Both the position numbers and the translations under genes were made by a program. A stretch of 64,000 nt of DNA from Amycolatopsis roodepoortensis (lineage in GTDB: Bacteria; Actinomycetota; Actinomycetes; Mycobacteriales; Pseudonocardiaceae): the NCBI RefSeq assembly GCF_014873915.1, contig NZ_JADBEJ010000004.1:806001-870000 (forward strand). Direction: 5' to 3'. Shown one piece after another: positions 4,197 through 63,169 of the stretch (positions are counted from its first letter, which is position 1; every line of letters starts with the position of its first letter). A model generated the notes under the pieces. The model was not told where the DNA came from. It was given only the letters and a program-made list of their open reading frames with translations, and made no database searches.

Positions 4197-4213
4197 AGCA
4201 AAGGTCCCTTGCT
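4197..4213. repeat. single-arm palindrome between convergent genes
   Basis: AGCAAAGGTCCCTTGCT is a 17-bp near-perfect palindrome in the 51-bp gap between the MFS transporter and the amidase, whose 3' ends face each other. The same 17 bases recur at 62973-62989 and, with one change, at 54799-54815. It looks like one arm of the nested-palindrome family described at other gene ends, and it could act as a bidirectional terminator hairpin. Confidence 0.6.
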
Positions 4214-4226
4214 CCCTTTCCGCAGG

Positions 4227-5603
4227 TCACGGCCAGGGACGGACCTCCTCGAGGAGCTTCGCGACCGCGAGCACCAGGTCGTCGGAGTGCCGCGGGCCGA
4301 CGATCTGCAGGCCGACCGGGAGGCCCCGCGAGGTGCGGCCCGCCGGCACGCTGATGGCGGGCTGCTGGGTCATGTTGAACGGGTAGGTGAACGGCGTCCA
4401 GTCCGGCCAGCTGCTCAGCCCGCTGCCCGGCGGCACCTCGTGCCCGGCTTCGAAGGCGGTGATCGGGAGGGTCGGTGTGATCAGCACGTCGTAGCGCGTG
4501 TGGAACTCGCCCATCAGGATGCCCAGCGCGGCCCGCTCGGCGTTGGCGCCGAGGTAGTCGCTCGCGGAGAAGGTCTTGCCGAGTTCCCACACCTTCCGCA
4601 GCCCGGGATCGACCTTCGTCTCCGAACCGGCGGGGAAGGTGTCCAGCCACTTGGCCGCACCTGTCGACCACAGGATGTCGAAGGCCGCTTTCGGGTCGGT
4701 GAAACCGGGATCGGTCTCTTCGATGTGCAGGCCCGCGTCGCCCAGCGACCGGACCGCCGACTTGACGATCTCCGCGACCTCCGGGTCGACGTCGACGTAG
4801 CCGAGCGTCGGCGAGTAGGCGGCGATCAGCCCGCGCACGTCCCGGCGGACGGCCTCGCGATAGGTCGAGACCGGCGGGGCGAGCGCGGCCGGGTCGCGGT
4901 GATCGGGCAGCGCGAGGACGTCGAGGAGCAGCGCCGTGTCGTCGACCGAACGCGCCATCGGGCCGGCGTGCGAAAGCGGTCCGAACGGGCTCGCCGGGAA
5001 CAGCGGGATCCGGCCGTGTGTCGGTTTCAGCCCGACGATTCCGCAGAACGAAGCCGGGATCCGGATCGAGCCGCCGCCATCGGTGCCGACGGAGAGTTCA
5101 CCCATCCCCGCCGCGACGGCCGCGGCGCTGCCCCCGCTCGAACCGCCCGCCGTCGTCGACGGGTCGATCGGGTTGCGGGTGATCCCGGTCAGCGTGTTGT
5201 CGGTGACGCCCTTCCACGCCAGCTCCGGCGTCGTGGTCTTTCCCAGCAGCACCAAGCCGTTCTCACGCAGCCGCGCGGTGACCGGGCTGTCGACGTCCCA
5301 CGGCTGGTCCGGGTCGATGCATCGCGAACCGCGCAACGTCGGCCAGCCCTGGGTCAGGAACATGTCCTTGATCGAGGCCGGAACGCCGTCGAGCCAGCCG
5401 ATCGGGTTGCCGTCCCGCCAGCGGATCTCGGACGCTTTCGCCTGTTCGAGCGCGCCGTCGGCGTCGACCAGGCAAAAGGCGTTGGTCTCGCCGTCGCGTT
5501 CCTCGATGGCGCGCAAGGCGTTCTGGGTGGCCTCGACCGGCGACAGCTCTCCGGTGGCATACGCCGCGACGAGCTCGCTCGCGGTCGACTTGGTGTCGTT
5601 CAT
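4227..5603 (-). CDS. amidase (amidase signature family)
   Basis: A 458-residue amidase signature enzyme that hydrolyses an amide to a carboxylate and ammonia. The Ser-cisSer-Lys triad is recognisable: K79 in GVPASIKD, the serines of GGSSGGS near 153-159, and S179 in GTDGGGSIRIPAS. The length is normal. It lies 7 bp downstream of the D-2-hydroxyacid dehydrogenase on the same strand, so the two form an operon that starts from the GATTGTCAACAATC-controlled divergent promoter near 6600. That ties it to the catabolic regulon, where it may release a carboxylic acid from an amide substrate. The real substrate is unknown. Confidence 0.9.
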   Translation of the reverse strand: MNDTKSTASELVAAYATGELSPVEATQNALRAIEERDGETNAFCLVDADGALEQAKASEIRWRDGNPIGWLDGVPASIKDMFLTQGWPTLRGSRCIDPDQPWDVDSPVTARLRENGLVLLGKTTTPELAWKGVTDNTLTGITRNPIDPSTTAGGSSGGSAAAVAAGMGELSVGTDGGGSIRIPASFCGIVGLKPTHGRIPLFPASPFGPLSHAGPMARSVDDTALLLDVLALPDHRDPAALAPPVSTYREAVRRDVRGLIAAYSPTLGYVDVDPEVAEIVKSAVRSLGDAGLHIEETDPGFTDPKAAFDILWSTGAAKWLDTFPAGSETKVDPGLRKVWELGKTFSASDYLGANAERAALGILMGEFHTRYDVLITPTLPITAFEAGHEVPPGSGLSSWPDWTPFTYPFNMTQQPAISVPAGRTSRGLPVGLQIVGPRHSDDLVLAVAKLLEEVRPWP

Positions 5604-5610
5604 CCGGCCC

Positions 5611-6600
5611 CTAACCTTGGCGAAGCGTCTCCGACGGCACGTACCCGAGCTGCTTGTCCACGACGTTGCGCAGCGGCTCCCCCGCGCGCCAGCGACGGAA
5701 GTTGTCCGCGAACACCTCTACCAGAGTATTACGCCAGCCGACGAAGTCGCCCGACATATGCGGCGAGATCAGCACGTTCTCCATAGTCCACAAAGGACTG
5801 TCGGAGGGCAGTGGCTCGGTGTCGAAGACGTCGAGCGCCGCGCCGCCGAGCGGCCCGTCCCGCAGTGCGCCGATCAGGTCCGAGGTGACGACCAGTTCGC
5901 CGCGGCCGACGTTGATGAACCGCGCTCCGGGCTTCATCGCGGCGAAGGTCTCGGCGTCGAACATGCCCTTCGTCTGCTCGGTCAACGGCGCGACCGCGAC
6001 GACGTAGTCCGCCCCGGGAAGGTGGCGCGCGAGGTCCGAAGACGCGTACACGTCCCCGAAGTCGGGATCGTCCTCACGAGGACGACGTCCGACGCCCGCC
6101 ACCGACATCCCGGCCGCCCGCAGCAGCCGCGCGATCGACCGGCCGATCGGACCCGTGCCGACCACGAGGACCCGGCGGCCGGAGATCCGCTCGCTCTCGC
6201 GGTGCTTCCACTGCTTTCGCCGCTGCAGGTCCCACGAACGAACGAAGTCTTTGGCGAACGCGAGGACGACTCCGAGGACGTACTCGGCGATGGCCCCGTC
6301 GAAGACCCCTCGGGAGTTGGTGAGCACGACGTCGCTCTCCTGCAGCCCCGGGAAGAGGACGGGGTCGACGCCCGCACTGGCGATGTGCAGCCAGCGCAGC
6401 TTGTCGGCCGCGTGCCAGGCGCCCGGGACGGCGGTCGAAAGGAAGTCGTAGACGAAGAACGCGTCGGCTCCGGATAACGCGTCAGCCAACCCGGCCTCGC
6501 CGGTGTAACGAACCACCGCTCGGTCTTCGATAGCGCGCATGTCCGGTGGGCGCGTGTCTCCGCAGAGCACCGCCAGCACAGGGGTCTCCGAGGCGATCAC
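5611..6600 (-). CDS. D-2-hydroxyacid dehydrogenase
   Basis: A 329-residue NAD(P)-dependent D-isomer 2-hydroxyacid dehydrogenase, interconverting a 2-keto acid and a D-2-hydroxy acid. The Rossmann motif is VVGTGPIGRSIARLL. The catalytic residues are R in NVGRGELV, E in FDTEPLPSD and H in LISPHMSG. The GTG start at 6600 is strongly supported: on the minus strand TTGACA, a 17-bp spacer and TACGGT end six bases before it, giving a leaderless promoter. The frame extends further upstream but would cross that promoter. It is the first gene of an operon with the amidase and divergent from the maleate-isomerase-like gene. Confidence 0.9.
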   Translation of the reverse strand: MIASETPVLAVLCGDTRPPDMRAIEDRAVVRYTGEAGLADALSGADAFFVYDFLSTAVPGAWHAADKLRWLHIASAGVDPVLFPGLQESDVVLTNSRGVFDGAIAEYVLGVVLAFAKDFVRSWDLQRRKQWKHRESERISGRRVLVVGTGPIGRSIARLLRAAGMSVAGVGRRPREDDPDFGDVYASSDLARHLPGADYVVAVAPLTEQTKGMFDAETFAAMKPGARFINVGRGELVVTSDLIGALRDGPLGGAALDVFDTEPLPSDSPLWTMENVLISPHMSGDFVGWRNTLVEVFADNFRRWRAGEPLRNVVDKQLGYVPSETLRQG

Positions 6601-6601
6601 G

Positions 6602-6640
6602 TTGACACCGTAAAAGTGGCTCGTATGATTGTCAACAATC
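6602..6640. promoter_or_regulatory. divergent promoter with GntR-type operator GATTGTCAACAATC
   Basis: Plus strand: TTGACA (6602-6607), 16 bp, TATGAT (6624-6629), near consensus. Minus strand: TTGACA (6635-6630), 17 bp, TACGGT (6612-6607), then six bases to the GTG at 6600. The palindrome GATTGTCAACAATC (6627-6640) covers the plus -10 and the minus -35, so one bound repressor would silence both directions. The same palindrome recurs at 7453-7466 and 12669-12682. The GntR protein encoded at 8258 is the obvious candidate ligand-responsive repressor; that link is an inference. Confidence 0.82.
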
Positions 6641-6698
6641 CGAGGAACGACCCCCGGAGCACCGGACTGTGACAGCAGAAGTTTCCGGAGGCTGAGAC

Positions 6699-7439
6699 TT
6701 GGATTTCGACTTACTGGAGTTCGAAGGCCCGTTGGCGCAGCGCGGTATCGGCGTGATCGCCCCCTTCGACCTGGCCCTGGAACGCGAGCTGTGGCGCTGG
6801 GTGCCCATGGAGGTCTCCCTCCACCTGGCCCGGACACCGTACGAGCCCGTGCCCGTCAGCATGGAGATGGCCCAGCTCGTCAGCGACAGCAGGCATCTCG
6901 CCGCCGCCACGCGGGACGTGCTCCACGTGGAGCCCGAAGTCGTCGCTTATCTGTGCACCTCCGGCAGTTTCGTCAACGGTGTGGACTACGAACGTTCTCT
7001 GACCAAGGCGATCTGCGACGCGGGCGCGACGGACGCCGTCACCACGTCCGGAGCACTGGCGGAGGTCCTGCATCAGCTCGACCTCCACCGGGTCTCGGTG
7101 CTCACCCCCTACGACGGCGACCTGACCGGGAAGCTGCACGACTTCCTGGCCGAGCTCGGCGTCGACACCGTCTCGAGCGACCATCTCGGCCTGGGTGGCG
7201 GTATCTGGAAGGTCAGCTACCGGACCATCGCCGAGCGCATCCTCGCCGCCGACCACGCCGACGCCGAAGCCATCTTCGTCAGCTGCACCAACCTCCCCAC
7301 CTACGATCTGATCGAGCCACTCGAAAGCGCGCTCGGCAAACCGGTCCTCACCGCGAATCAGCTCACCATGTGGGCCTGCCTCCGGCGGATGAACCTGCCG
7401 ATCGTCGGGCCCGGCAAGTGGCTCCGGGAGGTCGACTGA
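6699..7439 (+). CDS. maleate isomerase / arylmalonate decarboxylase family protein (two-cysteine form)
   Basis: A 246-residue member of the Asp/Glu racemase superfamily closest to maleate cis-trans isomerase and arylmalonate decarboxylase. It keeps both active-site cysteines, in YLCTSGSF and SCTNLPTYD, as maleate isomerase does. The TTG start at 6699 is chosen because GGAG lies eight bases upstream and the next sequence is the family N-terminus. It is the first gene of a unit with the paralogue at 7484 and the GntR regulator, controlled by the operator at 6627-6640. Possible roles are maleate to fumarate isomerisation or racemisation/decarboxylation of a related diacid. Confidence 0.82.
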   Translation: MDFDLLEFEGPLAQRGIGVIAPFDLALERELWRWVPMEVSLHLARTPYEPVPVSMEMAQLVSDSRHLAAATRDVLHVEPEVVAYLCTSGSFVNGVDYERSLTKAICDAGATDAVTTSGALAEVLHQLDLHRVSVLTPYDGDLTGKLHDFLAELGVDTVSSDHLGLGGGIWKVSYRTIAERILAADHADAEAIFVSCTNLPTYDLIEPLESALGKPVLTANQLTMWACLRRMNLPIVGPGKWLREVD

Positions 7440-7452
7440 CCTCTTCGCCTAC

Positions 7453-7466
7453 GATTGTCGACAATC
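7453..7466. promoter_or_regulatory. GntR-type operator GATTGTCGACAATC
   Basis: A perfect 14-bp palindrome in the 44-bp gap between the two isomerase-family genes. It overlaps a TACGAT -10-like hexamer (7450-7455) and ends 17 bp before the start codon of the second gene, with GGAGG at 7475-7479 in between. No convincing -35 hexamer is visible. The site could be an internal repressor-controlled promoter for the second gene plus the regulator, giving GntR autoregulation. Confidence 0.78.
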
Positions 7467-7483
7467 TGCCCTCCGGAGGTTCC

Positions 7484-8254: not shown

Positions 8255-8257
8255 ACC

Positions 8258-8950: not shown

Positions 8951-8954
8951 GCCT

Positions 8955-9431
8955 TCAGCCACGGCCCCGCACCCCCAGCACCGGCTGACCGCCCGTCCCG
9001 CCGCGGAAATCACCGTCCCACGGCCAATTGCCGTGCTCGTCCTCGTAGACCAGTTGCAGCGCACGGAATTCTTCGCCGTACAGGAGAACCGCGGTGAGCA
9101 GATGGGCCGACGGTGAACTGAGCGAAACGACCTCGAACGACGGCCATCCCACCGCGGCGGGCAGCACCTCACCCGCCTCCGGAGGCCCCGACCGGACCAC
9201 CTGCTGGGCGAAGTAGTTCAGCAGCTGGCCGGATCTTCGCTCCCTCAGGCCGGTGACGACGAGTTCCGGCAGCCCGGCGTCGGTGAGCCCGACCGTGTAC
9301 GCGAAGCCAGGTTGGACCGTGCCGCGCTCGACCGTCTGCACCATCCAGCCGTACTTCCGGATCAGCGGCCGCACTTCCTCGACGAGGTAGTCGGCGCGGG
9401 TCTTTCCGGGGTTGTCGCAATGCCAGCACAT
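8955..9431 (-). CDS. DUF4262 domain protein
   Basis: A 158-residue protein of the DUF4262 family, common in actinobacteria and of unknown function. It starts MCWHCDNPGKT with a CxxC-like pair, and has the family blocks GWMVQTVERG, FAYTVGLTDAGLPELVVTG and YGEEFRALQLVYEDEHGNWPW. It ends 4 bp from the GntR stop, convergent with it. Nothing in the context indicates membership in the catabolic regulon: no copy of the palindromic operator is found upstream. Confidence 0.82.
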   Translation of the reverse strand: MCWHCDNPGKTRADYLVEEVRPLIRKYGWMVQTVERGTVQPGFAYTVGLTDAGLPELVVTGLRERRSGQLLNYFAQQVVRSGPPEAGEVLPAAVGWPSFEVVSLSSPSAHLLTAVLLYGEEFRALQLVYEDEHGNWPWDGDFRGGTGGQPVLGVRGRG

Positions 9432-9790
9432 CAGCGCTCCTCAAGTCGTCGAATCCGATGACCGGCACTGTGCACCGGGGCACCGACAAAAACTCGCGAC
9501 CCGGGGTGACGCGCAGGCGGCGAACGGGCTTTCGTGCTCGATTTCGCGCAGATACTCCCTTTCAGGGCAACACTTTCGACTTGCTAGGAAGAAATTCGAC
9601 GGAGTTCCGGAGAGGCAAGGAACCGGGCTCGCGATGGACTGCCAGCGCCGTCGCCTCGGAAGTGACATGCGCTCGGCATGGAATGCTTGCAGGGATCCGA
9701 ATTCACCGGCCCGCGGCGCCACTCAACGACTCCACTGCCCCATCGGGAAGGCTGAATGAGTCACCCCGACATGTCTCCCTGAGCGACGCT
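9432..9790. other. non-coding gap with no recognisable gene
   Basis: About 360 bp upstream of the DUF4262 gene. It has a noticeably lower GC content than its neighbours, including an AT-rich stretch around 9535-9600, and no reading frame on either strand resembles a protein. No tRNA-like cloverleaf or operator palindrome was seen. It probably holds the DUF4262 promoter, and may be a remnant of lost sequence. Confidence 0.4.
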
Positions 9791-9847
9791 GTGTCGCGAA
9801 AGCCACTTTCGGGACATAAGACGTCCTCAGAGTGGCTTTCGCGACAC
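9791..9847. repeat. nested inverted repeat, GCGAAAGCCACTTTC type
   Basis: 17-bp perfect arms (9791-9807 and 9831-9847) around a 23-base centre. The left arm contains GAAAGCCACTTTC, itself a palindrome with apex CCA. The same arm sequence recurs in elements at 45839, 46046 and 61521. It lies in the gap beyond the 3' end of the dehydrogenase gene that stops at 10094. Confidence 0.8.
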
Positions 9848-9957
9848 GGCTGCGGAGATCTCGTCGTATCTGAACGCCACAGGAGCACGAGTGGCGAACC
9901 AAAGGCCGCCGGGTTCCGCACCACACCTAACGCGGCTACAGCCTTACGCCCCCTGAA

Positions 9958-10010
9958 TACGTGAAGGCCCCCTTCACTGCGTCTAGCGCAGTGAAGGGGG
10001 CCTTCACGTA
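9958..10010. terminator. nested palindrome, GTGAAGGCCCCCTTCAC type
   Basis: A perfect 24-bp-arm inverted repeat (9958-9981 and 9987-10010) with a 5-base loop. Each arm contains GTGAAGGCCCCCTTCAC, a palindrome in its own right. It sits about 85 bp after the stop of the minus-strand dehydrogenase, and would form a very stable hairpin in that transcript. There is no U-tract, as is common for actinobacterial terminators. Confidence 0.75.
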
Positions 10011-26504: not shown

Positions 26505-26551
26505 AGGAACGGTCCTTTCCTCGCGAAATTCGCGAGGAAAGGACCGTTCCT
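26505..26551. terminator. nested palindrome between convergent genes
   Basis: A perfect palindrome with 23-bp arms (26505-26527, 26529-26551) around one central base. The arm contains GGAACGGTCCTTTCC, itself close to palindromic. It starts 4 bp after the MMPL stop and ends 25 bp before the fadB stop on the other strand, the right place for a bidirectional terminator. Confidence 0.78.
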
Positions 26552-35200: not shown

Positions 35201-35210
35201 AGCGCGGCCA

Positions 35211-35265
35211 GCGCGTGAAGGCCTCCTTCCCTCGGCTGAGCCGAGGGAAGGAGGCCTTCACGCGC
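35211..35265. terminator. nested palindrome between convergent genes
   Basis: A perfect 55-bp palindrome (27-bp arms, one central base). It starts 11 bp after the acyl-CoA dehydrogenase stop and overlaps the last bases of the convergent gene (stop at 35258). Each arm holds GAAGGCCTCCTTC, a palindrome. The arm outer half and centre match the element at 43650-43704, with CCT in place of CCC at the apex. Confidence 0.8.
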
Positions 35266-36325
35266 TTTCGGGAGCGATCTGTTCGTCCAGGAAACGGTCG
35301 AGGTAGCGCCACGTGGTCCCGCGCGCCTTCCGGCCGGTGAGGACGCCGAGGTGGCCGCCGGGCGCGGTCTCGAAGGTCACCGACGGCGAGTTGTCCAGCA
35401 GGTCGGTGAGCCGTTCGACGGCGGCGCGCGGGGCGATCGTGTCGTTCTGCCCGGCGATGACCAGCGTCGGCACCTTGACCCCGGACAGCGCGATGATGCG
35501 GCCGTTGAGGTCGACCGTGCCCTCGGCGAGGTCGTTGGCGCGGAAGAACCGGTGGTAGATCTGGCCGAACGTCCGCCCGGGGTAGGCGATCATGTTGTCC
35601 ATGAAGTGGTCGACGGCCTCGATCTGCGCCAGGTAGTCCCGGTCGTCGAGATTCTTCAGGATGGCAAGGGGTTTGGTGATCTCCTTGCTGATCCCGGTCG
35701 CCCGGAAGACGCGGCTGACCAAATAGGACGGTGCGCCGCCGAGCGCCCGGTAGAACGGGGTCAGCAGGTGGCCGCCGGTGAGGTCCACCAGCGGACGGAA
35801 CGGGGCGATCAGCGGGATCGCGGTGAAATCGAACGGCGACGCGATGGTCGCGATCGATTCGATCGGCAGATCGGGCTGGTCGGCGGTGGTCAGCAACGAG
35901 AAGATCCCGCCGAGGCACCAGGCGACGACGTGCACGCCCTGGCCGCCGGAGTCCTCGCTGACCTTGCGGATCGCGCGCGGGAGCACCTCCTCGATCCAGT
36001 GCTCGATACCGAGCCGCCGGTCCGAGAACGCGACGTTCCCGTAGTCGACGAGGTAGGTGTTGCGGCCGCCCTCGACCAGGTGCTCGGCGAGGCTGCAGCC
36101 GCGGCGCAGGTCGAAGCACAGCGCGGGCGCGGCCAGCGGCGGCACCAGCAGCACCGGCGGGCCCGCCTGGGGCTCCTCGCCGTTGGTCAGCCGGTAGAGC
36201 GAACGATTCGGGCCCTGGTCGATCAGGACGCGCGGCACCGGGCGAAGATCGGCGACACCACCGTGCAGCACCTTCCCGACGACGTTCGACGCGGCGGCGG
36301 CGAGCCGTGCCGGGGGTGTGGCCAT
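35258..36325 (-). CDS. PHA synthase-like alpha/beta hydrolase
   Basis: A 355-residue alpha/beta-hydrolase-fold protein resembling class III polyhydroxyalkanoate synthase PhaC. The nucleophile elbow reads VAWCLGGIFS, with Cys in place of the lipase Ser, as in PHA synthases. The other triad residues appear as D in IAGQNDTIAPR and H in APGGHLGVLTG. The N-terminal VLLVPPLAAPALCFDL is the PhaC oxyanion region. No phaE or phaR gene is beside it, so a thioesterase or acyltransferase role remains possible. Upstream, CGGTAAGA and TCTTGCCG (36348-36368) form a possible operator. Confidence 0.75.
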   Translation of the reverse strand: MATPPARLAAAASNVVGKVLHGGVADLRPVPRVLIDQGPNRSLYRLTNGEEPQAGPPVLLVPPLAAPALCFDLRRGCSLAEHLVEGGRNTYLVDYGNVAFSDRRLGIEHWIEEVLPRAIRKVSEDSGGQGVHVVAWCLGGIFSLLTTADQPDLPIESIATIASPFDFTAIPLIAPFRPLVDLTGGHLLTPFYRALGGAPSYLVSRVFRATGISKEITKPLAILKNLDDRDYLAQIEAVDHFMDNMIAYPGRTFGQIYHRFFRANDLAEGTVDLNGRIIALSGVKVPTLVIAGQNDTIAPRAAVERLTDLLDNSPSVTFETAPGGHLGVLTGRKARGTTWRYLDRFLDEQIAPESA

Positions 36326-37908: not shown

Positions 37909-38676
37909 CTACAACATCGTGAGGACGCGCGGACCTTCTGTGGTGATCGCGACGGTGTGCTCGACGTGCGCGGCCCTGGCGCCGCGTACGGTGCGCAGCG
38001 TCCAGCCGTCGTCGTCGATGCGGTAGCCGTCGCGGCCGTCGGCGATGAACATCGGCTCGATCGCCAGCACCAGCCCGGGCTTGAGCCGCATGCCGCGGCC
38101 CGGCCTGCCCTCGTTCGGCAGATGCGGGTCCTCGTGCATGCTGCGGCCGATCCCGTGGCCGCCGTGGTGCGCGAGGAGGCCGTAGCCCGCTTCGCGCCCG
38201 ACCGTGCCGACGACATGGGAGATGTCGCCCATCGTGTTCCCCACCTGGGCGGCGGCGATCCCCGCGGCCAGCGCGCGTTCGGTGGTCGCGATGAGTTCGA
38301 GGTCGACGGGATGGGGGTCGCCGACGACGTAACTGATCGCCGCGTCGCCGTGCCAGCCGTCGATGTAGGCGCCGGCGTCGATGCTGACCAGGTCGCCGTC
38401 ACGCAGGCGGTAGTCCGACGGGATGCCGTGGACGACGGCGTCGTTGACGCTCGCGCAGATGACGGCAGGGAACGGGGTCGGCGCGGAATGCGGCCGATAG
38501 TGGAGGAACGACGGTTTCGCGCCGGCGTCCCTGATCAGCTGCGCGGCGAGCTCGTCCAGCTCTTTCAGGCTCACACCGATCGCGGACGCCTCTTTCACCG
38601 CTCGCAACGTCTGCGCCACGACACGACCGGACTCACGCATGACGTCCAGTTCGGCGGCGGATTTCAGCTCGACCAT
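37909..38676 (-). CDS. map: methionine aminopeptidase, type I
   Basis: A 255-residue methionine aminopeptidase that removes the initiator Met from new proteins. All five metal ligands are visible: D and D in VSIDAGAYIDGWHGDAA, H in GHGIGRSMHEDPHLPNEG, E in LAIEPMF and E in AITTEGPRVLTML. There is no N-terminal SH3-binding extension or zinc finger, so it is the short bacterial form. The ATG lies inside a 38-bp perfect palindrome; TATAGT precedes it by seven bases, which predicts a leaderless mRNA. Actinobacteria often have two map genes, so this may be the second copy. Confidence 0.93.
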   Translation of the reverse strand: MVELKSAAELDVMRESGRVVAQTLRAVKEASAIGVSLKELDELAAQLIRDAGAKPSFLHYRPHSAPTPFPAVICASVNDAVVHGIPSDYRLRDGDLVSIDAGAYIDGWHGDAAISYVVGDPHPVDLELIATTERALAAGIAAAQVGNTMGDISHVVGTVGREAGYGLLAHHGGHGIGRSMHEDPHLPNEGRPGRGMRLKPGLVLAIEPMFIADGRDGYRIDDDGWTLRTVRGARAAHVEHTVAITTEGPRVLTML

Positions 38677-38710
38677 GCCGATAACTATACCGGTATAGTT
38701 ATCGGCATGG
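38673..38710. promoter_or_regulatory. 38-bp perfect palindrome over the map promoter and start codon
   Basis: The arms 38673-38691 and 38692-38710 are exact inverted copies, centred on ACTATACCGGTATAGT. The minus-strand start codon of map (38676-38674) is inside the left arm, and its -10 TATAGT is in the palindrome. The right arm carries the mirror-image -10 and an ATG at 38707. It is either a large operator or an inverted duplication of a promoter and start region. Confidence 0.7.
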
Positions 38711-38719
38711 TCAAGGGTG

Positions 38720-43649: not shown

Positions 43650-43704
43650 GCGCGTGAAGGCCCCCTTCCCTCGGCTGAGCCGAGGGAAGGGGGCCTTCAC
43701 GCGC
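43650..43704. terminator. nested palindrome after the SGNH lipase gene
   Basis: A perfect 55-bp palindrome (27-bp arms) that begins 8 bp beyond the lipase stop on the minus strand. The arm carries GAAGGCCCCCTTC, a self-palindrome. It is nearly the same sequence as the 35211-35265 element, including the CTCGGCTGAGCCGAG centre. Confidence 0.8.
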
Positions 43705-45320: not shown

Positions 45321-45818
45321 GTGGAGCCGGACAGGAGCGAGTACGAGCGGAGGCTCGTCGAAAAGGCGCAGCGTGCGCTCGTGGCGATCAGCCTCGGGGA
45401 GGACGCCGAGGCGCTCGACGAGCTCACGCCGACCGCCGTCGAGCCCCGAGCCCGCTCCGAAGAGACCAAAGAGCTCGTGATGATGCTCTTCGGTGAATGC
45501 AGCGCGATGGTGTCGACCCTCGGTGACGGCGGCAGCGCGCCGGTCAAGGTCCAGGTGTTCGACGAGGACGGTGAAGAGGTCTCGATCGACCAGGCGGACC
45601 CGCCCGTGCGGACGGCCGTGCGCACGCTGCTGGCCGAGGTGCACGGCAACAGCGAGGCCGCGCAGGAACAGGTCGAGATCGCGCTCGCCAACGCCGCGCC
45701 GGACGAGGTCGACAGCCTGGTGCTGCAGGCGCTGCGCTGGACGATCCGGCTGTCGGCGGAATGCCTGGACCGGGACCTGCCGGTGGCGCCCTGGATCTCG
45801 GACGCGGTGGCGGACTAG
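45321..45818 (+). CDS. conserved hypothetical protein
   Basis: A 165-residue acidic, soluble protein that I do not recognise. It has no signal peptide, membrane segment or metal motif. It is rich in helix-forming segments (EYERRLVEKAQRALVAISLGED near the N-terminus; AALRWTIRLSAEC-like helix near the C-terminus). TTTGAT at 45309-45314 lies six bases before the GTG at 45321, supporting this start and a leaderless mRNA; a GTG at 45306 in the same frame would fall before that promoter element. The 3' end opens into a repeat-rich gap. Confidence 0.7.
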   Translation: MEPDRSEYERRLVEKAQRALVAISLGEDAEALDELTPTAVEPRARSEETKELVMMLFGECSAMVSTLGDGGSAPVKVQVFDEDGEEVSIDQADPPVRTAVRTLLAEVHGNSEAAQEQVEIALANAAPDEVDSLVLQALRWTIRLSAECLDRDLPVAPWISDAVAD

Positions 45819-45838
45819 GGCGGGTAGCTCCGCCAGGC

Positions 45839-45891
45839 GTCGCGAAAGCCACTTTCGCGACGCCTGATGTCCCGAAAGTGGCTTTCGCGAC
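45839..45891. terminator. nested inverted repeat after hypothetical gene
   Basis: 19-bp perfect arms (45839-45857, 45873-45891) with a 15-base centre, 21 bp after the stop at 45818. The left arm continues as GTCGCGAAAGCCACTTTCGCGAC, a palindrome by itself with CCA apex. Same family as 9791, 46046 and 61521. Confidence 0.78.
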
Positions 45892-45958
45892 ACGCTTGCC
45901 GACGGCTTGGGCGACTGATCGCCGAGCTTGAGCGACTTCGGGAGCTGGGCAGGTTGCC

Positions 45959-46011
45959 GATGTCGCATTCGAGACGCTCAGTGTCCCCAATGCGACATCG
46001 GGGACGCTGAG
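45959..46011. repeat. interleaved inverted repeats (pseudoknot-like A-B-A'-B')
   Basis: GATGTCGCATT (45959-45969) pairs with AATGCGACATC (45989-45999). CTCAGTGTCCCC (45977-45988) pairs with GGGGACGCTGAG (46000-46011), with one mismatch. The four segments interleave and the last three abut exactly, the arrangement of an H-type pseudoknot if transcribed. It lies in the 550-bp gap between convergent genes. Confidence 0.6.
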
Positions 46012-46045
46012 GGACATCGGCTGGGCGCGCGAGCCGGCGGGAACG

Positions 46046-46100
46046 CGTTGCGAAAGCCACTTTCGCAACCTTCAACGTTGCGAAAGTGGCTTTCGCAACG
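46046..46100. repeat. nested palindrome, copy 1 of an identical 54-bp element
   Basis: 24-bp perfect arms (46046-46069, 46077-46100) and spacer CTTCAAC. Each arm is a palindrome with 10-bp stem GTTGCGAAAG and apex CCA or TGG. Bases 46046-46099 are identical to 61521-61574, spacer included. It lies in the gap between the hypothetical gene and metX. Confidence 0.85.
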
Positions 46101-46211
46101 GCACCTTTCCTCGCCAGTAGACGCCGCGGACCAGGCCGTGTCCTGTGAGTATCGCCTGGCGTGCTGACCTGCGGAAAGAGAGCGGGGGACCTTTGGTATC
46201 GCGGGAGGGGT

Positions 46212-46250
46212 GTGTGGATATGGGGACGTTGAGTGTCCCTATATCCACAC
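46212..46250. repeat. hairpin with GTGTGGATAT arms
   Basis: 16-bp arms (46212-46227, 46235-46250) with one mismatch and a 7-base loop, GTTGAGT. The inner part, GGGGACGTTGAGTGTCCC, shares its design with the GGGGACGCTGAG / CTCAGTGTCCCC segment of the 45959 element, so the two are related modules. Confidence 0.65.
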
Positions 46251-46308
46251 GGTCACCGCGCGGGGGACCGCGAAATCACTTGCGGGCACGGCCTAGCCAC
46301 CCCGCAAC

Positions 46309-46368
46309 GGACGACTCGCGTGTCCGGATTGACGACACGCGTGATCAGCCGGACATCACCCGTGTCGC
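46309..46368. repeat. 21-bp-period tandem repeat, short array
   Basis: Three diverged copies begin at 46309 (GGACGACTC), 46330 (TGACGACAC) and 46351 (GGACATCAC), exactly 21 bp apart, each continuing with CGTGT- or CGTGA-type sequence. The array ends at the stop of metX on the minus strand. The same 21-bp unit forms a longer array at 61280-61478. Confidence 0.65.
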
Positions 46369-47463
46369 CTAACCCAGCAGCAGCTTCACCAGCCGCCCGA
46401 TCTGCTCGACCTCGATCAGGAACGAGTCGTGCCCGTACGGCGAGCCGATGACCGCGAACTCCGCCCCGCCGATCCCGTCCGCGATGGCCCGCGACTGGTA
46501 CAGCGGGTAGAGCCGGTCACTGTCCACCCCGGCCGCGACCGTCCGCGCGGTGATCCGGCCGAGCGCGTTCGCGACACCGCCCCGCCCGCGCCCGACGTCG
46601 TGCGTGTTCATCGATTCGGTGAGCACCACGTAGCTGCCGGCGTCGAACCGGCGCGCCAGCTTCCCGGCGTGATGGTCCAAATAGGACTCGACAGCGAACC
46701 GCCCGCCGCGCAAGGGGTCTTCGCCGTCCTGATGGCGACGCCCGAAGCGTTGCGCCAGTTCGGCTTCGCTGCGGTAGGTCGCGTGCGCGATACGCCGCGC
46801 GATGCCGAGGCCGGCGTCCGGGCCGCCGCCGGGGACGTCGTGATAGTCGCCGCCGTGCCAGCCCGGATCGGCGCGGATGGCGTGCAGTTGCGGCGCGGAC
46901 CAGGCGATCTGGTCGGCCGACGCCTGCGCCGTCGACGCGAGCACGAGCAGCGCCGAGACCCGGTCCGGCTCGCTCACCGCCCATTCCAGCGCGCGCATCC
47001 CACCCATGGAACCGCCGATCACCGCCGCCCACCGGCCGATGCCCAGCGCGTCGGCGAGGACGACCTCGGCGCCCACCTGATCCCGCACGGTCACGGCGGG
47101 AAACCTGCTGCCCCAAGGTTTTCCGTCCGGATGCCGCGAAGACGGACCGGTCGAGCCCTGGCAGCCGCCGAGCACGTTCGGGACCACCACGAAGAACGTG
47201 CCGGTGTCGATCGCCTTGCCCGGCCCGATCAGGCCGTCCCACCAACCGGGGCTGACGTGGCCTTCTTCCGCGGGACCGGCGGCGTGGCTGTCACCGGTCA
47301 GCGCGTGCTCGACGAGGATCGCGTTGGAGGCACTGGGATCCAGCGTCCCCCAGGTCTCGTAGGCGAGCGTGAAAGGCAGCGTGCCGCCGGTTTCGAGCGC
47401 CTGGACGCCGGTGACGAAACGGCGGCGTCCAGGCGGCTCTCCCTCCCGCCACGCACCGGTCAC
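46369..47463 (-). CDS. metX: homoserine O-acetyltransferase MetX
   Basis: A 364-residue alpha/beta-hydrolase-fold acyltransferase that activates homoserine with acetyl-CoA for methionine synthesis. The nucleophile elbow is VIGGSMGGMRALEW (Ser). The oxyanion and substrate blocks are VLGGCQGSTGPSS and the catalytic D and H are in the late DSDRLYP and SPYGHDSFLIE segments. The GTG start overlaps the metY stop by 4 bp, forming a metY-metX operon. Its length and motifs are standard for actinobacterial MetX. Confidence 0.95.
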   Translation of the reverse strand: MTGAWREGEPPGRRRFVTGVQALETGGTLPFTLAYETWGTLDPSASNAILVEHALTGDSHAAGPAEEGHVSPGWWDGLIGPGKAIDTGTFFVVVPNVLGGCQGSTGPSSRHPDGKPWGSRFPAVTVRDQVGAEVVLADALGIGRWAAVIGGSMGGMRALEWAVSEPDRVSALLVLASTAQASADQIAWSAPQLHAIRADPGWHGGDYHDVPGGGPDAGLGIARRIAHATYRSEAELAQRFGRRHQDGEDPLRGGRFAVESYLDHHAGKLARRFDAGSYVVLTESMNTHDVGRGRGGVANALGRITARTVAAGVDSDRLYPLYQSRAIADGIGGAEFAVIGSPYGHDSFLIEVEQIGRLVKLLLG

Positions 47464-51669: not shown

Positions 51670-51728
51670 TTCAACGACAAACTGTGCGACAACGAACACT
51701 TTGTAGTTCTACAAAACCGCGCCCAGAC

Positions 51729-51781
51729 GTCAGGAAAGGGTCTTTCAGGACGAGAAAAATCTTGAAAGACCCTTTCCTGAC
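51729..51781. terminator. nested palindrome between convergent genes
   Basis: 19-bp perfect arms (51729-51747, 51763-51781) with a 15-base AT-rich loop. The arm contains GAAAGGGTCTTTC, a palindrome with GGT apex. It lies between the PucR stop (51669) and the stop of the minus-strand small protein (51792). Confidence 0.8.
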
Positions 51782-51791
51782 ATCCGACGGT

Positions 51792-57403: not shown

Positions 57404-57450
57404 ATGAAAGGCCCCTTCATCGCGAAATCCGCGATGAAGGGGCCTTTCAT
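57404..57450. terminator. nested inverted repeat after ABC-2 permease
   Basis: 21-bp perfect arms (57404-57424, 57430-57450) with a 5-base loop, 19 bp after the permease stop and 60 bp before the next gene on the same strand. The arm contains TGAAAGGCCCCTTCA, a near-palindrome. Same design as the elements at 9958 and 43650. Confidence 0.78.
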
Positions 57451-57509
57451 CGCGTTCGGCCCTGCGCGAACCGGCCGGTCCTGTCGGTGCGGACGCATAG
57501 GCTTGCGGG

Positions 57510-60500: not shown

Positions 60501-61232
60501 GAGCGGCTGCGGGGCGAGGTCTCCTTCAAGGATGTCGATTTCGCTTACACCGCAACGGATGATCCCGCGCTCAAGCAGCTGACGCTGGAGGTCGCGCCCG
60601 GGGAGACCGTCGCCTTGGTCGGTGCGACGGGCGCCGGGAAGTCGACGGCGGTGAAGCTCGTCGCGCGTTTCTACGACGCGACAGCCGGTGTGGTCCGGAT
60701 CGACGGCACCGACATCCGCGAGTACGACCTGGGCGCCCTGCGCACGCGAATGGGCGTGGTGCCCCAGGAAGCGCATCTGTTCTCGGGGACCGTCGCGGAC
60801 AATGTGCGCTACGGCAGGCCTTCCGCGACGGACGCGGAGGTCGAGGAAGCGGTGCGGTCCGTCGGCGCGCTCGACGGTGTCGCCGCGCTTCCGGCCGGTT
60901 TCCACCAGCCCGTCGGTGAACGCGGACGGTCTCTTTCGGCCGGGCAACGGCAACTCGTCGCCCTCGCCCGCGCCGAACTCGTGGACCCGGACGTCCTCCT
61001 GCTCGACGAGGCGACCGCGGCGCTGGACCCGTCCACCGAAGCCGCCGTCCTGCGCGCGACGGAACAGCTCGCGCGCCGCCGCACGACCTTCGTGGTCGCG
61101 CACCGCCTCGCCACCGCCGCCAAGGCGGACCGGATCGTGGTGCTGGACCACGGCCGGATCATCGAACAGGGCACGCACGCGGACCTGGTCGCGGCGAACG
61201 GCCACTACGCGCGCCTTTGGTCCCTCGGCTGA
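57510..61232 (+). CDS. fused ABC multidrug exporter (two TMD-NBD units in one chain)
   Basis: A 1240-residue protein formed by two complete ABC-exporter halves in tandem. Half 1: six helices, then Walker A GTAGSGKST (about 390), signature LSGGQRQRLGLARAL and Walker B DDATSAID, where Asp replaces the catalytic Glu. Half 2: helices from about residue 680, then Walker A GATGAGKST, signature LSAGQRQLVALARAE and Walker B DEATAALD. This asymmetry, one degenerate and one consensus ATP site, is typical of heterodimeric exporters such as TmrAB or BmrCD. TAGGCT lies six bases before the GTG. Confidence 0.9.
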   Translation: MTTAPPRPRQASPARETAPAPTGGWIRRLAASCWKHPWLVVLSLGAAIIGVGLQAAGPLLIREALDDAVAGDTSRLGLLAAVMAVLQVLTFGNAFARRYVGGRLALDVQHDLRRQVFGAVSRLDGGKQDALRTGQVASRAISDLQLVTSVLMQVPLSAGSVIFALLSLGAMLWMSPTLTLIAMVVAPAIAIIMAVSRKRLFPATWAAQQRAADVAQQVEETVTGVRVVKGFGQEAREVAKLEKTAKKLFAERMRAARLSSLPTATTAALPAAGQVAVLAVGGVLALKGEVSLGTFLAFATYLSILIGPARMISSLVVQAQLTRAGAERVNELIDAQPDVVDSPDAQPLPEGPLGVRLEDVSFGYTRSDPVLDGLTLEARPGETLALVGTAGSGKSTISLLLPRFYDVHSGSVQVGDLDVRDVRQRDLRSVIGVVFEEAFLFSSSVRDNIAYGRPDASDEEIRAAARAAEADEFIQRLPDGYDTLVGERGLTLSGGQRQRLGLARALMTDPRVLVLDDATSAIDTVTEAAIHDTLRSVTASRTTLLIAHRRSTLALADRIAVLDKGRVVDVGTEEELLARCPLFRELVAGPGDDVEEPHRCEGLDCGPAGITPALWPEQDKADELAGERKGSGGEWDVDLPPSQELIDGVRKLPPATDVPRLPGTDVTAPEPKFRLGRLLKPVRAPLAVVIGLVAADALATIAMPALYQYGIDSGVRAGAEAVIWLAAGIGALVILTDWLVVYLQTRMTARVGETVLYSLRVRSYAHLQRLGLDFYERELSGKIMTRMTTDVDALSTFLQTGVAQAVVSALTLVGIAAALMITDIGLAAYALAVLPILIVATVIFRRASSKAYTEARERVSVVNADMQENVNGLRVAQAYTREERTAEKFASRSDEYRRSRLRAQRYVATYFPFAAMLSGLAEVVVLIVGANRVAAGTLSAGVLVAFLLYLGQFFSPIQQLSSVFDGYQQARVGLTRIGDLLRTPTSVPAAENPVPVPERLRGEVSFKDVDFAYTATDDPALKQLTLEVAPGETVALVGATGAGKSTAVKLVARFYDATAGVVRIDGTDIREYDLGALRTRMGVVPQEAHLFSGTVADNVRYGRPSATDAEVEEAVRSVGALDGVAALPAGFHQPVGERGRSLSAGQRQLVALARAELVDPDVLLLDEATAALDPSTEAAVLRATEQLARRRTTFVVAHRLATAAKADRIVVLDHGRIIEQGTHADLVAANGHYARLWSLG

Positions 61233-61279
61233 GCGTGAAGGACGGTCGTGTCTCAGGTACCTCCTTCGCGTGACTGAAC

Positions 61280-61342
61280 GGACGACACACGTGCTGGGAG
61301 GGACGGCACACGTGATCGGGCGGTCGACTCGTGGCGGAACCA
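61280..61342. repeat. inverted copies of the 21-bp repeat
   Basis: Three copies with 21-bp spacing start at 61280 (GGACGACAC), 61301 (GGACGGCAC) and 61322 (GGTCGACTC). They run opposite to the six copies at 61353-61478, so the whole forms an imperfect inverted array. It begins 48 bp after the stop of the fused exporter gene. Confidence 0.65.
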
Positions 61343-61352
61343 CGCCACGCTC

Positions 61353-61478
61353 GTGTCGTCCGCCCAATCACACGTGTCGTCCGTTCAGCCACGCGTGTCG
61401 TCCGTTCAGCCACGCGTGTCGTCCCCCTGATCACACGTGTCGTCCGTCTGATCACCCGTGCCGTCCGCCCAATCACGC
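61353..61478. repeat. six tandem copies of a 21-bp repeat
   Basis: GTGTCGTCC-type units start at 61353, 61374, 61395, 61416, 61437 and 61458, exactly 21 bp apart with no spacers. Most carry CCGTTCAGCCACG or CTGATCAC-type tails. Two central copies match exactly. Together with the inverted copies they could form a long hairpin in transcripts from either strand, in the gap between convergent genes. Confidence 0.75.
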
Positions 61479-61520
61479 GAAACTGCCGTCACCCACCCGG
61501 AAACGCGGCTCCGGCGGAGG

Positions 61521-61574
61521 CGTTGCGAAAGCCACTTTCGCAACCTTCAACGTTGCGAAAGTGGCTTTCGCAAC
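61521..61574. repeat. nested palindrome, copy 2 of an identical 54-bp element
   Basis: Identical base for base to 46046-46099, including the CTTCAAC spacer. Arms 61521-61544 and 61552-61574. It lies 16 bp before the stop of the minus-strand gene at 61590 and 289 bp after the fused-exporter stop. Confidence 0.85.
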
Positions 61575-61589
61575 CACCGCCAACGCCGC

Positions 61590-61901
61590 TCACGCAGCGA
61601 CGAGGTCCAGCTGGAATTGCGCCCCCGGAGCCGACGGCTCCCACCCACGAGCCAGCGCCAGCCGGATGGCCCGTTCGACATCCGAAGGCAGCACGGCCTT
61701 CGACGGCACCCCCATGTAGTTCAACGGGTGCGCGTGATCCGTCCGGACCACCAGCACCGCACCCCGCGCGTCCTCCAATTCCACCCCGTACGAAAGGAAA
61801 CACCCACCGTCCTGTGCGTAGGTGGGCTTCCGCCGGACGATCCACCGGTAAGCGGCGTCGTCGACGACGATCCGTCGCGATCCCTTGCGCAGCAATGCCA
61901 T
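61590..61901 (-). CDS. small conserved hypothetical protein
   Basis: A 103-residue protein of unknown function (MALLRKGSRRIVVDDAAYRWIVRRKPTYAQDGG). A start at 61901 is preferred because an upstream extension to 61997 would run into the divergent gene. It is followed by the nested palindrome at 61521. It has the look of a small basic regulatory or nucleic-acid-related protein, without a recognised motif. Confidence 0.6.
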   Translation of the reverse strand: MALLRKGSRRIVVDDAAYRWIVRRKPTYAQDGGCFLSYGVELEDARGAVLVVRTDHAHPLNYMGVPSKAVLPSDVERAIRLALARGWEPSAPGAQFQLDLVAA

Positions 61902-61975
61902 GAAGCCAGCATGAACCGGCGGGCAAGGGAATTTCGGTCGCCCGCATCCAAAGCAGCTGTCACGCTGTACGGGAA

Positions 61976-62545
61976 ATGAAAGAAGAGATCCCGGCACGGC
62001 AGATCCGCGCCGTACACACCGAAACCACGATCCGCGTCTATCAGGCGTACTCGCCGGCCATCGCCGACGCCGCGCTGAAGGCGGGCACCTTCGTGCCGCC
62101 GTTCAAACGCGAACGCATGACCTGGATCAAGCCGTCCTTCCTCTGGATGGCGTACCGCTGCGGCTGGGCGGCGAAGCCCGGCCAGGAGCGCGTACTCGCC
62201 CTCGACATCACTCGCGAGGGTTTCGCCTGGGCGCTCGAACACGCGGCGCTCAGCCACTACGACCCCGACGTCCACCCCGACCGGAAGACGTGGCAGGACG
62301 AGGTCAAGGCCAGCCCGGTCCGCATCCAGTGGGATCCGGAACGCGGCATCCGGCTCGGCGCGCTGAAGCACCGTTCGCTCCAGATGGGCCTGAGCGGCGA
62401 AGCCGTCGATCGCTATGTCGACAAGTGGATCACGGCGGTCACCGACGTCACCCCGCTCATGCGCGAGGTCGGCGCCCTGGTCGCGGCGAACCGCATCGAA
62501 GACGCCGAAGCCCTGCTACCCGCGGAGCGCCCGTACCCCGGCTAA
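61976..62545 (+). CDS. DUF4291 family protein
   Basis: A 189-residue DUF4291 protein of unknown function. The family blocks are IRVYQAYSPAIADAAL, RMTWIKPSFLWMAYRCGWA, and VRIQWDPERGIRLGALKHRSLQMGL. Conserved polar residues suggest an enzyme or nucleic-acid-related activity, but none is known. It ends 4 bp before the stop of the convergent gene at 62542. It is divergent from the small gene at 61901. Confidence 0.82.
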   Translation: MKEEIPARQIRAVHTETTIRVYQAYSPAIADAALKAGTFVPPFKRERMTWIKPSFLWMAYRCGWAAKPGQERVLALDITREGFAWALEHAALSHYDPDVHPDRKTWQDEVKASPVRIQWDPERGIRLGALKHRSLQMGLSGEAVDRYVDKWITAVTDVTPLMREVGALVAANRIEDAEALLPAERPYPG

Positions 62546-62808
62546 GGCCGCCACTTGAGGCCGCTCATCCCGGCGACCTCGAGGTCCTGGGGCGAAGCCC
62601 AGCGGACGGTCCCCGGCCGGACGTGCACCCCGGCCGTCACCGTCCAGTCCGGCTCGTCGGGCTCGACGTGCTCCATCTCCTTGAAGTCGTCGAGCGTCGG
62701 CCAGACCGCCGAGCACGAGTCGCACATCAGCACGACCTTGCCGGACTCGGTGACCAGCGGGCGCACGCGCCCCTCGTCCCAGAACGACGGGCACTCGTCG
62801 AGCCACAT
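62542..62808 (-). CDS. small hypothetical protein with a CxxC pair
   Basis: An 88-residue protein (MWLDECPSFWDEGRVRPLVTE, VVLMCDSCSAVW). The MCDSC motif and an earlier Cys suggest partial zinc-ribbon character. The start at 62808 is the most reasonable; the frame is open to 63087 but that part is not protein-like. It overlaps the DUF4291 stop by 4 bp. Function unknown. Confidence 0.6.
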   Translation of the reverse strand: MWLDECPSFWDEGRVRPLVTESGKVVLMCDSCSAVWPTLDDFKEMEHVEPDEPDWTVTAGVHVRPGTVRWASPQDLEVAGMSGLKWRP

Positions 62809-63169
62809 CGGCTGCCACCACCTCGCGGGCGATCGGCGGCCGGCACGACACCGGCCGCATCCTCCACCCAGCGAAACCCCCCGACGTGAACTCCAGGCTG
62901 TCCGGGCACGACGACCCAGCCAACCTTTACCGACGGGACAGTGACCTGACCTGCACGGACGGTGAAAGTGACAGCAAAGGTCCCTTGCTCCCCCGCCGGA
63001 GGCGGACCGGGCCGGATTTCGGTCTCTTGATCGAGACAGTGACCCATCACCTAGTGCGCCACGCCTCACACAGGCCAGTTCCATCACACGGCTGCGACCG
63101 AGGGGGTTAGCCTGGTAGGCGCATCAGCGGTGTTCAAGATCTCGAGACGGATAGAGGCGAGTCCAAGCC
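62809..63169. other. intergenic region upstream of the 2-oxoglutarate decarboxylase gene
   Basis: A 361-bp gap between divergent genes. It contains AGCAAAGGTCCCTTGCT at 62973-62989, identical to the palindrome at 4197-4213, but here it is not at a gene 3' end. Otherwise only promoter sequence for the plus-strand gene is likely. No coding sequence or tRNA was recognised. Confidence 0.5.

What the first reader, a model, noticed from the sequence alone, without database searches (positions are those of the whole stretch)
4197..62989. Nested-palindrome family at gene 3' ends
At least nine long inverted repeats (9791, 9958, 26505, 35211, 43650, 45839, 46046, 51729, 57404, plus 61521) have arms that are themselves palindromes with a shared core GAARG, a three-base apex (CCA, CCC, CCT or GGT) and CYTTC. 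All lie just after gene stops, usually between convergent genes, and are very GC-rich without U-tracts. They look like a family of modular bidirectional terminators in which outer stems vary and the core is fixed. Single-arm forms occur at 4197 and 62973; the latter is not at a 3' end. I know of no name for this family.
Basis: partly seen in the sequence, partly recalled or inferred. Interest (0 to 1): 0.83.

Follow-up and report, generated by a model that had tools for sequence, protein, structure and literature searches.

The report
Mobile palindrome families at gene ends
An Amycolatopsis genome carries hundreds of copies of several unrelated palindromic DNA repeats that keep appearing, disappearing and replacing one another just after genes, where many probably act as two-way stop signals for transcription.

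Summary
The ten palindromes are real. Nine of ten carry the GAARG-NNN-CYTTC core (19 window matches against 0.15 expected) and nested arms are far above chance. They are not one family but at least three classes.

(i) Dispersed families (F1 to F7, my names), each with its own near-fixed stems: about 266 F1, 107 F3 and 94 F4 copies in this genome. Of the genomes searched only congeners have them, mostly one group of close relatives, in very different numbers. At orthologous gene ends a family was shared in 16 of 62 comparisons, single-copy hairpins in 22 of 27. Empty sites and exchanges are seen.

(ii) Ordinary inherited hairpins (51729, 57404).

(iii) The 'single-arm' motif at 4197 and 62973: a separate, inherited, regionally clustered palindrome.

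Best reading: REP/BIME-like repeats of unknown mobiliser. The RAYT domain is absent from 36 of 36 congeneric genomes and no GTAG head was seen in F1, F2, F3. F2, F3, F4 and F6 usually abut stop codons and probably serve as U-less bidirectional terminators; F1 does not. Termination itself was not tested.

The parts
9788..9850 (.). F1 element, right arm partly decayed; tandem context, 246 nt from the nearest 3' stop
   Evidence: absent from the orthologous end in G019
9958..10010 (.). F2 element (full palindrome AAGTAC-GTGAAGG...CCTTCAC-GTACTT in other copies)
26505..26551 (.). Hairpin between convergent genes (MMPL transporter and 3-hydroxyacyl-CoA dehydrogenase); no GAARG core; relatives have hairpins of other sequence at the same end
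35210..35266 (.). F3 element between convergent acyl-CoA dehydrogenase and alpha/beta hydrolase genes; overlaps the end of the second by my gene call; F4 stands here in G019 and G014
43650..43704 (.). F3 element 7 nt after a stop (tandem genes); G014 has another hairpin here
45839..45891 (.). F1 variant a (GTCGCG foot), 20 nt after the stop at 45818
45957..46001 (.).
46046..46100 (.). F1 variant b (GTTGCG foot)
46212..46250 (.).
51726..51784 (.). Nested hairpin, stems shared with G019 and G014, loop variable: inherited
57404..57450 (.). Nested hairpin shared with G014 and, with several changes, G019
61521..61575 (.). F1 variant b, 289 nt after a stop; absent from G019, whose gap holds an F4-type foot
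4198..4212 (+). Single-arm palindrome GCAAAGGTCCCTTGC at a convergent end; 15/15 identical in G019 and G014
62974..62988 (+). Same single-arm motif in a divergent gap; 15/15 in G019, 14/15 in G014

Best explanation
Most of the listed elements are members of several lineage-specific dispersed palindromic repeat families. They resemble in build and behaviour the REP/BIME repeats of proteobacteria: two inverted hairpin units, 44-80 bp, extragenic, many copies. Each family was amplified independently, mainly within one group of close Amycolatopsis species, and is gained and lost quickly at gene 3' ends, so relatives often have different families at the same end (shown). As RNA each listed element would fold into one long hairpin, with two short hairpins as a weaker alternative (computed). 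Families F2, F3, F4 and F6 mostly sit within about 15 nt of stop codons, without U-tracts, and would act as bidirectional I-shaped terminators or 3'-end protectors (inferred). F1 sits further out and is more likely passive or a secondary barrier (inferred). The mobilising enzyme is unknown; the RAYT tyrosine-transposase domain was searched for and is absent. Elements 51729 and 57404 are ordinary inherited 3'-end hairpins.
For: Near-identical copies at unlinked sites: found by structure alone, and with unrelated flanks for 48 F1, 21 F3, 8 F2, 6 F2b copies picked by pattern. Copy numbers, own / other carrying genomes: F1 core 533 matches / 4 to 371; F3 107 / 1 to 41; F4 94 / up to 255; F6 105 arms / 2 to 285; zero in the 24 non-congeners, reversed-pattern controls zero. 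Sharing at orthologous ends 16 of 62 for families, 22 of 27 for single-copy hairpins, Fisher p 1.4e-6 (two relatives pooled). Empty F3 site in both relatives (L119:5446). At the end after the gene at 46369-47463, 11 of 12 close genomes (own included; typed by eye) carry one or more families in changing combinations and one none. 3'-end bias. Tandem F2, F3, F4, F6 within 15 nt of the stop: 18 of 22, 4.8 expected; other hairpins 12 of 19, 4.3 expected; F1 0 of 26, 1.8 expected. Stem covariation in F4. U-less hairpins are a large class of mapped RNA 3' ends in Streptomyces clavuligerus (353 of 535 highly structured ends; PMC8269248, passages).
Against: No transcript 3' ends were examined. No target-site duplication beyond chance was found in F1, F2, F2b, F3 and no mobiliser, so transposition is inferred from presence and absence only; gene conversion could also spread copies. 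At convergent ends the chance of finding another element in the relative is not clearly higher where own has a non-shared family than where own has none (G014 4 of 14 against 10 of 32, p 1.0; G019 4 of 8 against 3 of 23, p 0.05); at tandem ends it is (7 of 12 against 2 of 150; 8 of 12 against 2 of 179), but the tandem controls include gaps inside operons. A demand for 'some hairpin' at these ends is therefore not shown. F4 is not confined to the close group: G009 has 19 forward/14 reverse matches and G051 one.
Confidence: 0.66

Rival explanations
1. One family of modular bidirectional terminators with a fixed GAARG-NNN-CYTTC core and freely varying outer stems.
For: Shared core well above chance, 3'-end bias, no U-tract and strong hairpins. 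Nested hairpins of other sequence also stand at one gene end in three more distant congeners (L163, L167, L169, by eye).
Against: Stems are about as conserved as cores within F1, F2, F3; F4, F6 and F7 occupy the same kind of site with no such core or another one; nesting is at chance level in the loci of other genera and of other Amycolatopsis; copy numbers vary independently per family.
Confidence: 0.1
2. Selfish or neutral REP-like repeats without any terminator role, kept at 3' ends only because insertion elsewhere breaks genes or promoters.
For: Fast turnover, lineage-specific bursts, F1 lying away from stops, empty convergent ends in relatives, no raised exchange rate at convergent ends.
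Against: Stop abutment of F2, F3, F4 and F6 is tighter than uniform placement in tandem gaps and like that of other hairpins; U-less GC-rich hairpins are mapped RNA 3' ends in a Streptomyces (PMC8269248).
Confidence: 0.25
3. DNA-level binding sites for a nucleoid, gyrase or segregation protein, palindromic because the protein is a dimer.
For: Four near-identical half-sites per nested element; the single-arm motif has near-constant copy number and clusters in one region.
Against: F1, F3, F4 and F6 differ greatly in copy number between close relatives, unlike sites of a conserved protein. This rival fits the single-arm motif better than the finding's main elements.
Confidence: 0.08
4. Independent local origin of hairpin terminators by mutation or template switching at each end.
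For: Orthologous ends of more distant species carry unrelated hairpins.
Against: Many near-identical 44-60 bp copies at unlinked ends are not expected from independent origin.
Confidence: 0.04

Closest known systems
REP / BIME repeats (GTAG-tagged, RAYT-associated)
   Same: High-copy extragenic imperfect palindromes, often inverted pairs, mainly between convergent and codirectional genes and in two species mostly under 20 bp from stops of convergent genes (PMC3733652 and PMC2817692, passages); targets of insertion sequences (PMC1525189, passages; here an IS481-like element in F4).
   Different: No GT(A/G)G head beside the palindromes of F1, F2, F3; no RAYT domain PF01797 in 36 of 36 congeneric genomes; several families of unrelated sequence in one genome; actinobacterial host. 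The words Amycolatopsis, Streptomyces and Actinobacteria do not occur in the main text of PMC3733652.
CGTC-tagged REPs
   Same: Palindromic repeats, frequent dimers, no dedicated transposase known (PMC3733652, passages). F1 variant a has GACGTC at the inner end of its left arm in its consensus.
   Different: F1 variant b lacks it; no unpaired tag was seen in F1, F2 or F3.
MITEs
   Same: Short, non-coding, dispersed, inverted repeats, presence and absence between relatives (features of MITEs recalled).
   Different: No target-site duplication above chance in F1, F2, F2b or F3 and no parent transposon found in the part looked at.
I-shaped (U-less) intrinsic terminators
   Same: Stable GC-rich hairpin just after the stop, no U-tract, conserved in GC-rich genomes (PMC8269248, passages).
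   Different: Ordinary terminators are not dispersed near-identical copies that swap between ends (inference).
Double-hairpin or repetitive hairpin elements of mitochondrial DNA
   Same: Compact hairpin repeats confined to groups of close relatives, mobility inferred from presence and absence (PMC2800124, passages).
   Different: Mitochondrial; the passages seen give no link with gene ends as here.
Inverted pairs of DNA uptake sequences acting as terminators
   Same: Closely spaced complementary copies of a fixed motif forming terminator hairpins (mentioned in PMC2267715, passages). Resembles the single-arm motif's inverted pairs.
   Different: Uptake sequences (Neisseria, Haemophilus) number in the hundreds to thousands (recalled); the motif here has 60 to 95 copies in 14 of the 15 genomes that carry it and is itself palindromic.

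Membership tests
REP/BIME (GTAG type) | Extragenic palindromic units in about 100 or more copies | tested here: met
   F1 266 forward/267 reverse, F3 107, F4 94 in this genome; 5 of 186 inverted repeats in CDS by my gene calls
REP/BIME (GTAG type) | Inverted pairing of units | tested here: met
   F1 48 pairs, all in one order, 11 solo arms
REP/BIME (GTAG type) | GT(A/G)G head beside the palindrome | tested here: not met
   Flank profiles of 48 F1, 21 F3, 8 F2, 6 F2b; the F4 and F6 patterns of that call were too strict (0 and 1 copy), so these were not profiled
REP/BIME (GTAG type) | Cognate RAYT (PF01797) | tested here: not met
   0 of 36 congeneric genomes, 3 of 24 others; control positive in 5 of 14
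CGTC REP | Unpaired CGTC tag at one end | tested here: inconclusive
   GACGTC in the F1a consensus at the inner arm end, absent in F1b
MITE | Target-site duplication | tested here: not met
   No clear excess in F1, F2, F2b, F3; a single GATC duplication at one empty F3 site
MITE | Parent transposon with the same ends | tested here: inconclusive
   Only solo arms in the 1.264-Mb sample were listed; whole genome not available as a file
I-shaped intrinsic terminator | Stable hairpin without U-tract close to the stop | tested here: met
   F2, F3, F4, F6: 18 of 22 tandem copies within 15 nt of the stop; no flank with 5 or more T. Not met for F1: 0 of 26 within 15 nt
I-shaped intrinsic terminator | RNA 3' ends at the hairpin | not testable with these tools
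   No transcript data
Rfam families | Match at gathering score | tested here: not met
   0 matches in the window

The most novel reading that the evidence does not exclude
Mobile terminators: an unknown enzyme, not a RAYT, copies whole hairpin cassettes into the first nucleotides after stop codons. Unrelated cassette families compete for and replace each other at the same gene ends, so a genome's transcription stop signals are partly a population of selfish elements.
Probability: 0.2. Interest if true: 0.82.

Novelty: new variant of a known kind. Interest (0 to 1): 0.56.

Why it matters
REP-like repeats have been catalogued mainly in Proteobacteria, the GTAG kind with RAYT enzymes (PMC3733652, PMC2817692, passages). 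Here several independent families, without RAYT, have spread in a group of actinobacteria and sit where transcription must stop. That makes it testable whether repeats supply terminators, how fast stop signals turn over, and what moves such repeats. It also warns against reading long hairpins at Amycolatopsis gene ends as one conserved terminator class.

Tried and rejected
Rejected: a single family (stems fixed within families, several unrelated cores). RAYT mobilisation. Known Rfam RNA. Target-site duplications (best excess 4.6 of 48 copies after trying many offsets). An arm-only covariation count for F6 was discarded because its filter admitted coding sequence chosen for pairing. A parent transposon for F4: the 1.3-kb insert seen in G019 is an IS481-like element inserted in the F4 apex, not the parent. 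The idea that the single-arm motif marks the replication terminus: its main cluster lies about 1.1, 1.2 and 2.2 Mb from the parS pair (parS sequence recalled) in G022, G047 and G019; GC skew of 20 stretches of G047 was too noisy to place origin or terminus.

Dropped before a count: the F8, F9 and single-arm types were left out. In the first typing F8 and F9 were shared in 8 of 16 cases and the single-arm motif in 4 of 4, while F1 to F6 were shared in 13 of 63 and hairpins in 20 of 27.

'Close group' rests on one protein (90-94% identity; G047 and G048 were not in that call).

Papers: passages only were read of PMC3733652, PMC8269248, PMC1525189, PMC2800124, PMC2817692 and PMC2267715. No paper on these Amycolatopsis repeats appeared in the listings; one search listed 15 of 599 papers, and subscription papers are not held.
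Full report
SETTING. The window is G000:C4:806001-870000 of a 9.11-Mb genome in 8 contigs. Named loci closest by a protein of the window are from Amycolatopsis pittospori, A. coloradensis and A. regifaucium (97-98% identity), so the host is an Amycolatopsis. Gene positions come from my own codon-usage caller, not from an annotation. The own-genome sample is the window plus 60 stretches, 1.264 Mb, 13.9% of the genome. Tool tallies of '60 genomes' include the genome itself: 35 congeners and 24 genomes of other families of the order are the relatives; no other genus of the same family was among them.

OBSERVATION. All ten inverted repeats are where stated. The core GAARGNNNCYTTC occurs 19 times in the window against 0.15 expected; nine of ten elements carry it, 26505 does not. 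In the sample there are 186 inverted repeats; in six of the sequences a shuffle gave 0 against 24 real. Arms are themselves self-complementary (score 5 or more) in 98 of 186 against 10.7 for shuffled arms. In 80 loci of named organisms the same measure is 3 of 11 against 0.2 in the three closest Amycolatopsis and 6 against about 5 in the other 77, so strong nesting is a feature of this group. By eye, though, three more distant congeners also have nested hairpins at one end (L163, L167, L169). Folded as RNA, the long hairpin has -38 to -61 kcal/mol in all ten; the two separate arm hairpins together reach at most about -28.

FAMILIES. Sorting the 186 repeats (names F1 to F9 are mine) gives 52 F1 (GTCGCGAAAGCCACTTTCGNGAC-spacer-inverse, variants a and b), 44 with GAAGG-NNN-CCTTC (F2, F2b, F2c, F3), 15 F4 (CTCGTGAGTGG...GGTTCTAACC...), 10 F6 (CGCATTTCGTCCTCTGGATGCG...), 3 F5, 1 F7 and 61 others. 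Within F1, F2, F2b and F3 copies are nearly identical with unrelated flanks (copies picked by pattern; the listing rests on structure alone and shows the same). F1 arms come in one fixed order, 48 of 48 pairs, with 11 solo arms. Both the between-arm and within-arm pairs of F1 covary above shuffles, largely through the a/b difference (23 distinct copies), and the F4 stem covaries (18 distinct copies). Related copies limit the weight of this.

DISTRIBUTION. Exact patterns counted in 60 genomes: F1 in 14, F3 in 12, F4 in 13, F6 in 14 (own included), all congeners, reversed-pattern controls zero. The carriers among those also seen are genomes whose test protein is 90-94% identical to ours; the exception is F4, also in G009 (19/14; 78% identical) and once in G051. 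Copy numbers vary independently: G018 has F4 255 but F3 0; G015 has F6 285 arms but F4 0; this genome has the most F1 and F3.

TURNOVER. Ends orthologous to this genome's were compared in G019 (210 of 345) and G014 (263 of 345), flank identity about 95%. With revised typing (F8, F9 and the single-arm motif left out) a dispersed family was shared in 16 of 62 cases and a single-copy hairpin in 22 of 27 (Fisher p 1.4e-6; the two relatives are pooled, so an end can count twice). Exchanges include F3 for F4 (35211, L124:12508), F1 for F4 (L118:16220 in G019; G014 there has both) and a clean empty F3 site in both relatives at L119:5446, where the convergent genes nearly abut and GATC is duplicated around the insert. 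After the gene at 46369-47463, twelve close genomes (own included, typed by eye) show F1a, F1b, F2b-like, F4-like, F5, F6 or F7, alone or combined, in 11 and nothing in 1. Against this, some ends keep their family (L126:16963 F3 shared with G014), and at convergent ends the relative's chance of carrying a different element is not clearly raised (G014 4 of 14 against 10 of 32; G019 4 of 8 against 3 of 23).

POSITION. Inverted repeats: 99 convergent, 67 tandem, 6 divergent, 5 CDS, 9 at stretch edges; intergenic regions over 40 bp: 108, 314, 208 (Fisher p 1.6e-18 for divergent avoidance). In tandem gaps F2, F3, F4 and F6 lie within 15 nt of the upstream stop in 18 of 22 cases, 4.8 expected if uniform; other hairpins in 12 of 19, 4.3 expected; F1 in 0 of 26, 1.8 expected. 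So two behaviours exist: stop-abutting families, placed like ordinary hairpins, and the looser F1.

MECHANISM. Shown: repeat families, restricted amplification, fast gain and loss, 3'-end bias, stable U-less hairpins. Inferred: copy-and-insert mobility (gene conversion not excluded), and terminator or 3'-protector function of F2, F3, F4 and F6. In Streptomyces clavuligerus 353 of 535 highly structured mapped 3' ends have fewer than three U after the stem (PMC8269248, passages), which makes the function plausible. No mobiliser is known; PF01797 is absent from 36 of 36 congeneric genomes.

ORDINARY HAIRPINS. 51729 and 57404 are inherited: stems kept, loops or single bases changed, in both relatives. 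18185 shows a compensatory A-T to G-C change in G014. At the 26505 end G019 and G014 each have a hairpin of different sequence, and so, by eye, do most of the 26 more distant loci printed: structure retained, sequence turned over, as expected of terminators.

SINGLE-ARM MOTIF. GCAAAGGTCCCTTGC (4198, 62974) is something else. With N at the centre it has 60 to 95 copies in this genome and 13 relatives, 10 in a 14th (G021), none in the other 45 relatives; the reversed control gave one match in all. In this genome 62 of 94 lie in 404 kb (4.4% of the genome), a second group of 13 in 158 kb. G019 and G022 have like clusters (58 of 88 in 414 kb, 39 of 62 in 308 kb), collinear with ours above 20 shuffles each (scores 54.4 against at most 30.4; 41.8 in reverse order against at most 24.2). 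Of 30 own sites tested against loci at hand, 9 gave 11 spanning alignments, with the motif 98.8% and its flanks 85.8% identical and 9 of 11 motifs perfect; 12 sites aligned only in pieces that did not span the motif and 9 not at all, so conservation is shown for a minority. In 20 stretches of G022, 50 sites of a slightly relaxed pattern lie 25 convergent, 18 tandem, 2 divergent, 3 CDS, 2 edge, often as inverted pairs. That cluster holds core-type genes (RF-1/PCRF, ABC and FtsX domains, an rRNA operon). It looks like a conserved binding site or an old, frozen repeat.

VERDICT. REP/BIME-like in working, but failing two defining tests of GTAG REPs, hence a new variant rather than a member. Interesting for multiplicity, turnover and the missing mobiliser; function needs transcript data.

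Noticed in passing
window 4198-4212 and 62974-62988; G000:C5:3250230-3653253 and C4:1000047-1158408: GCAAAGGTCCCTTGC: near-constant copy number in 14 of 15 carrying genomes, about two thirds of sites in one 0.3-0.4 Mb region with conserved order in three genomes, and where alignable more conserved than its flanks. Candidate chromosome-organising or regulator site; absent from roughly half of the chromosome in G019 and G022.
   Followed up: partly
L191:652 onward, L219, L220 (G019): A 1.3-kb IS481-like element (NCBIfam 215.8 bits, curated cut-off 224) sits at the same point of the F4 apex in three copies, flanked by 16-bp repeats of the apex (differing at two bases in one copy). The copies were found through F4 matches, so insertions elsewhere would have been missed.
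   Followed up: partly
window 61232-61500; L114:10078, L114:10880, L020:2178: Arrays of GACGACACGCGTGATC-like and GGCGTAACTCGCG-like repeats (my F9, F8) in 3' gaps, forming imperfect long hairpins.
   Followed up: no
L117:9635 and L121:4579 and their G019 counterparts: F6 reduced to about one arm in G019 where this genome has both arms; at L117:9635 the TAG in the F6 foot may be the gene's stop codon.
   Followed up: no
window 38671-38712: Perfect 21-bp palindrome overlapping the start of the minus-strand gene 37909-38676, kept in G019 with a matching change on both sides, missing in G014; possibly an operator.
   Followed up: no
window 45818-46369: Four repeat elements of three families (F1a, F7, F1b, F5) packed in one 550-bp convergent gap.
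   Followed up: partly
L126:16963-17211: In this genome a segment with an F1 copy follows a repeated copy of the gene end and the F3 foot, compared with a plain shared F3 in G014; suggests duplication with insertion.
   Followed up: no
window 57404-57450 and 26505-26551; L117:26, L125:12859, L047:14275: Hairpins with an apex like GCGAAATTCGC and ATGAAAGG-type arms recur, so 57404 and 26505 may belong to a looser family rather than being strictly single-copy.
   Followed up: no
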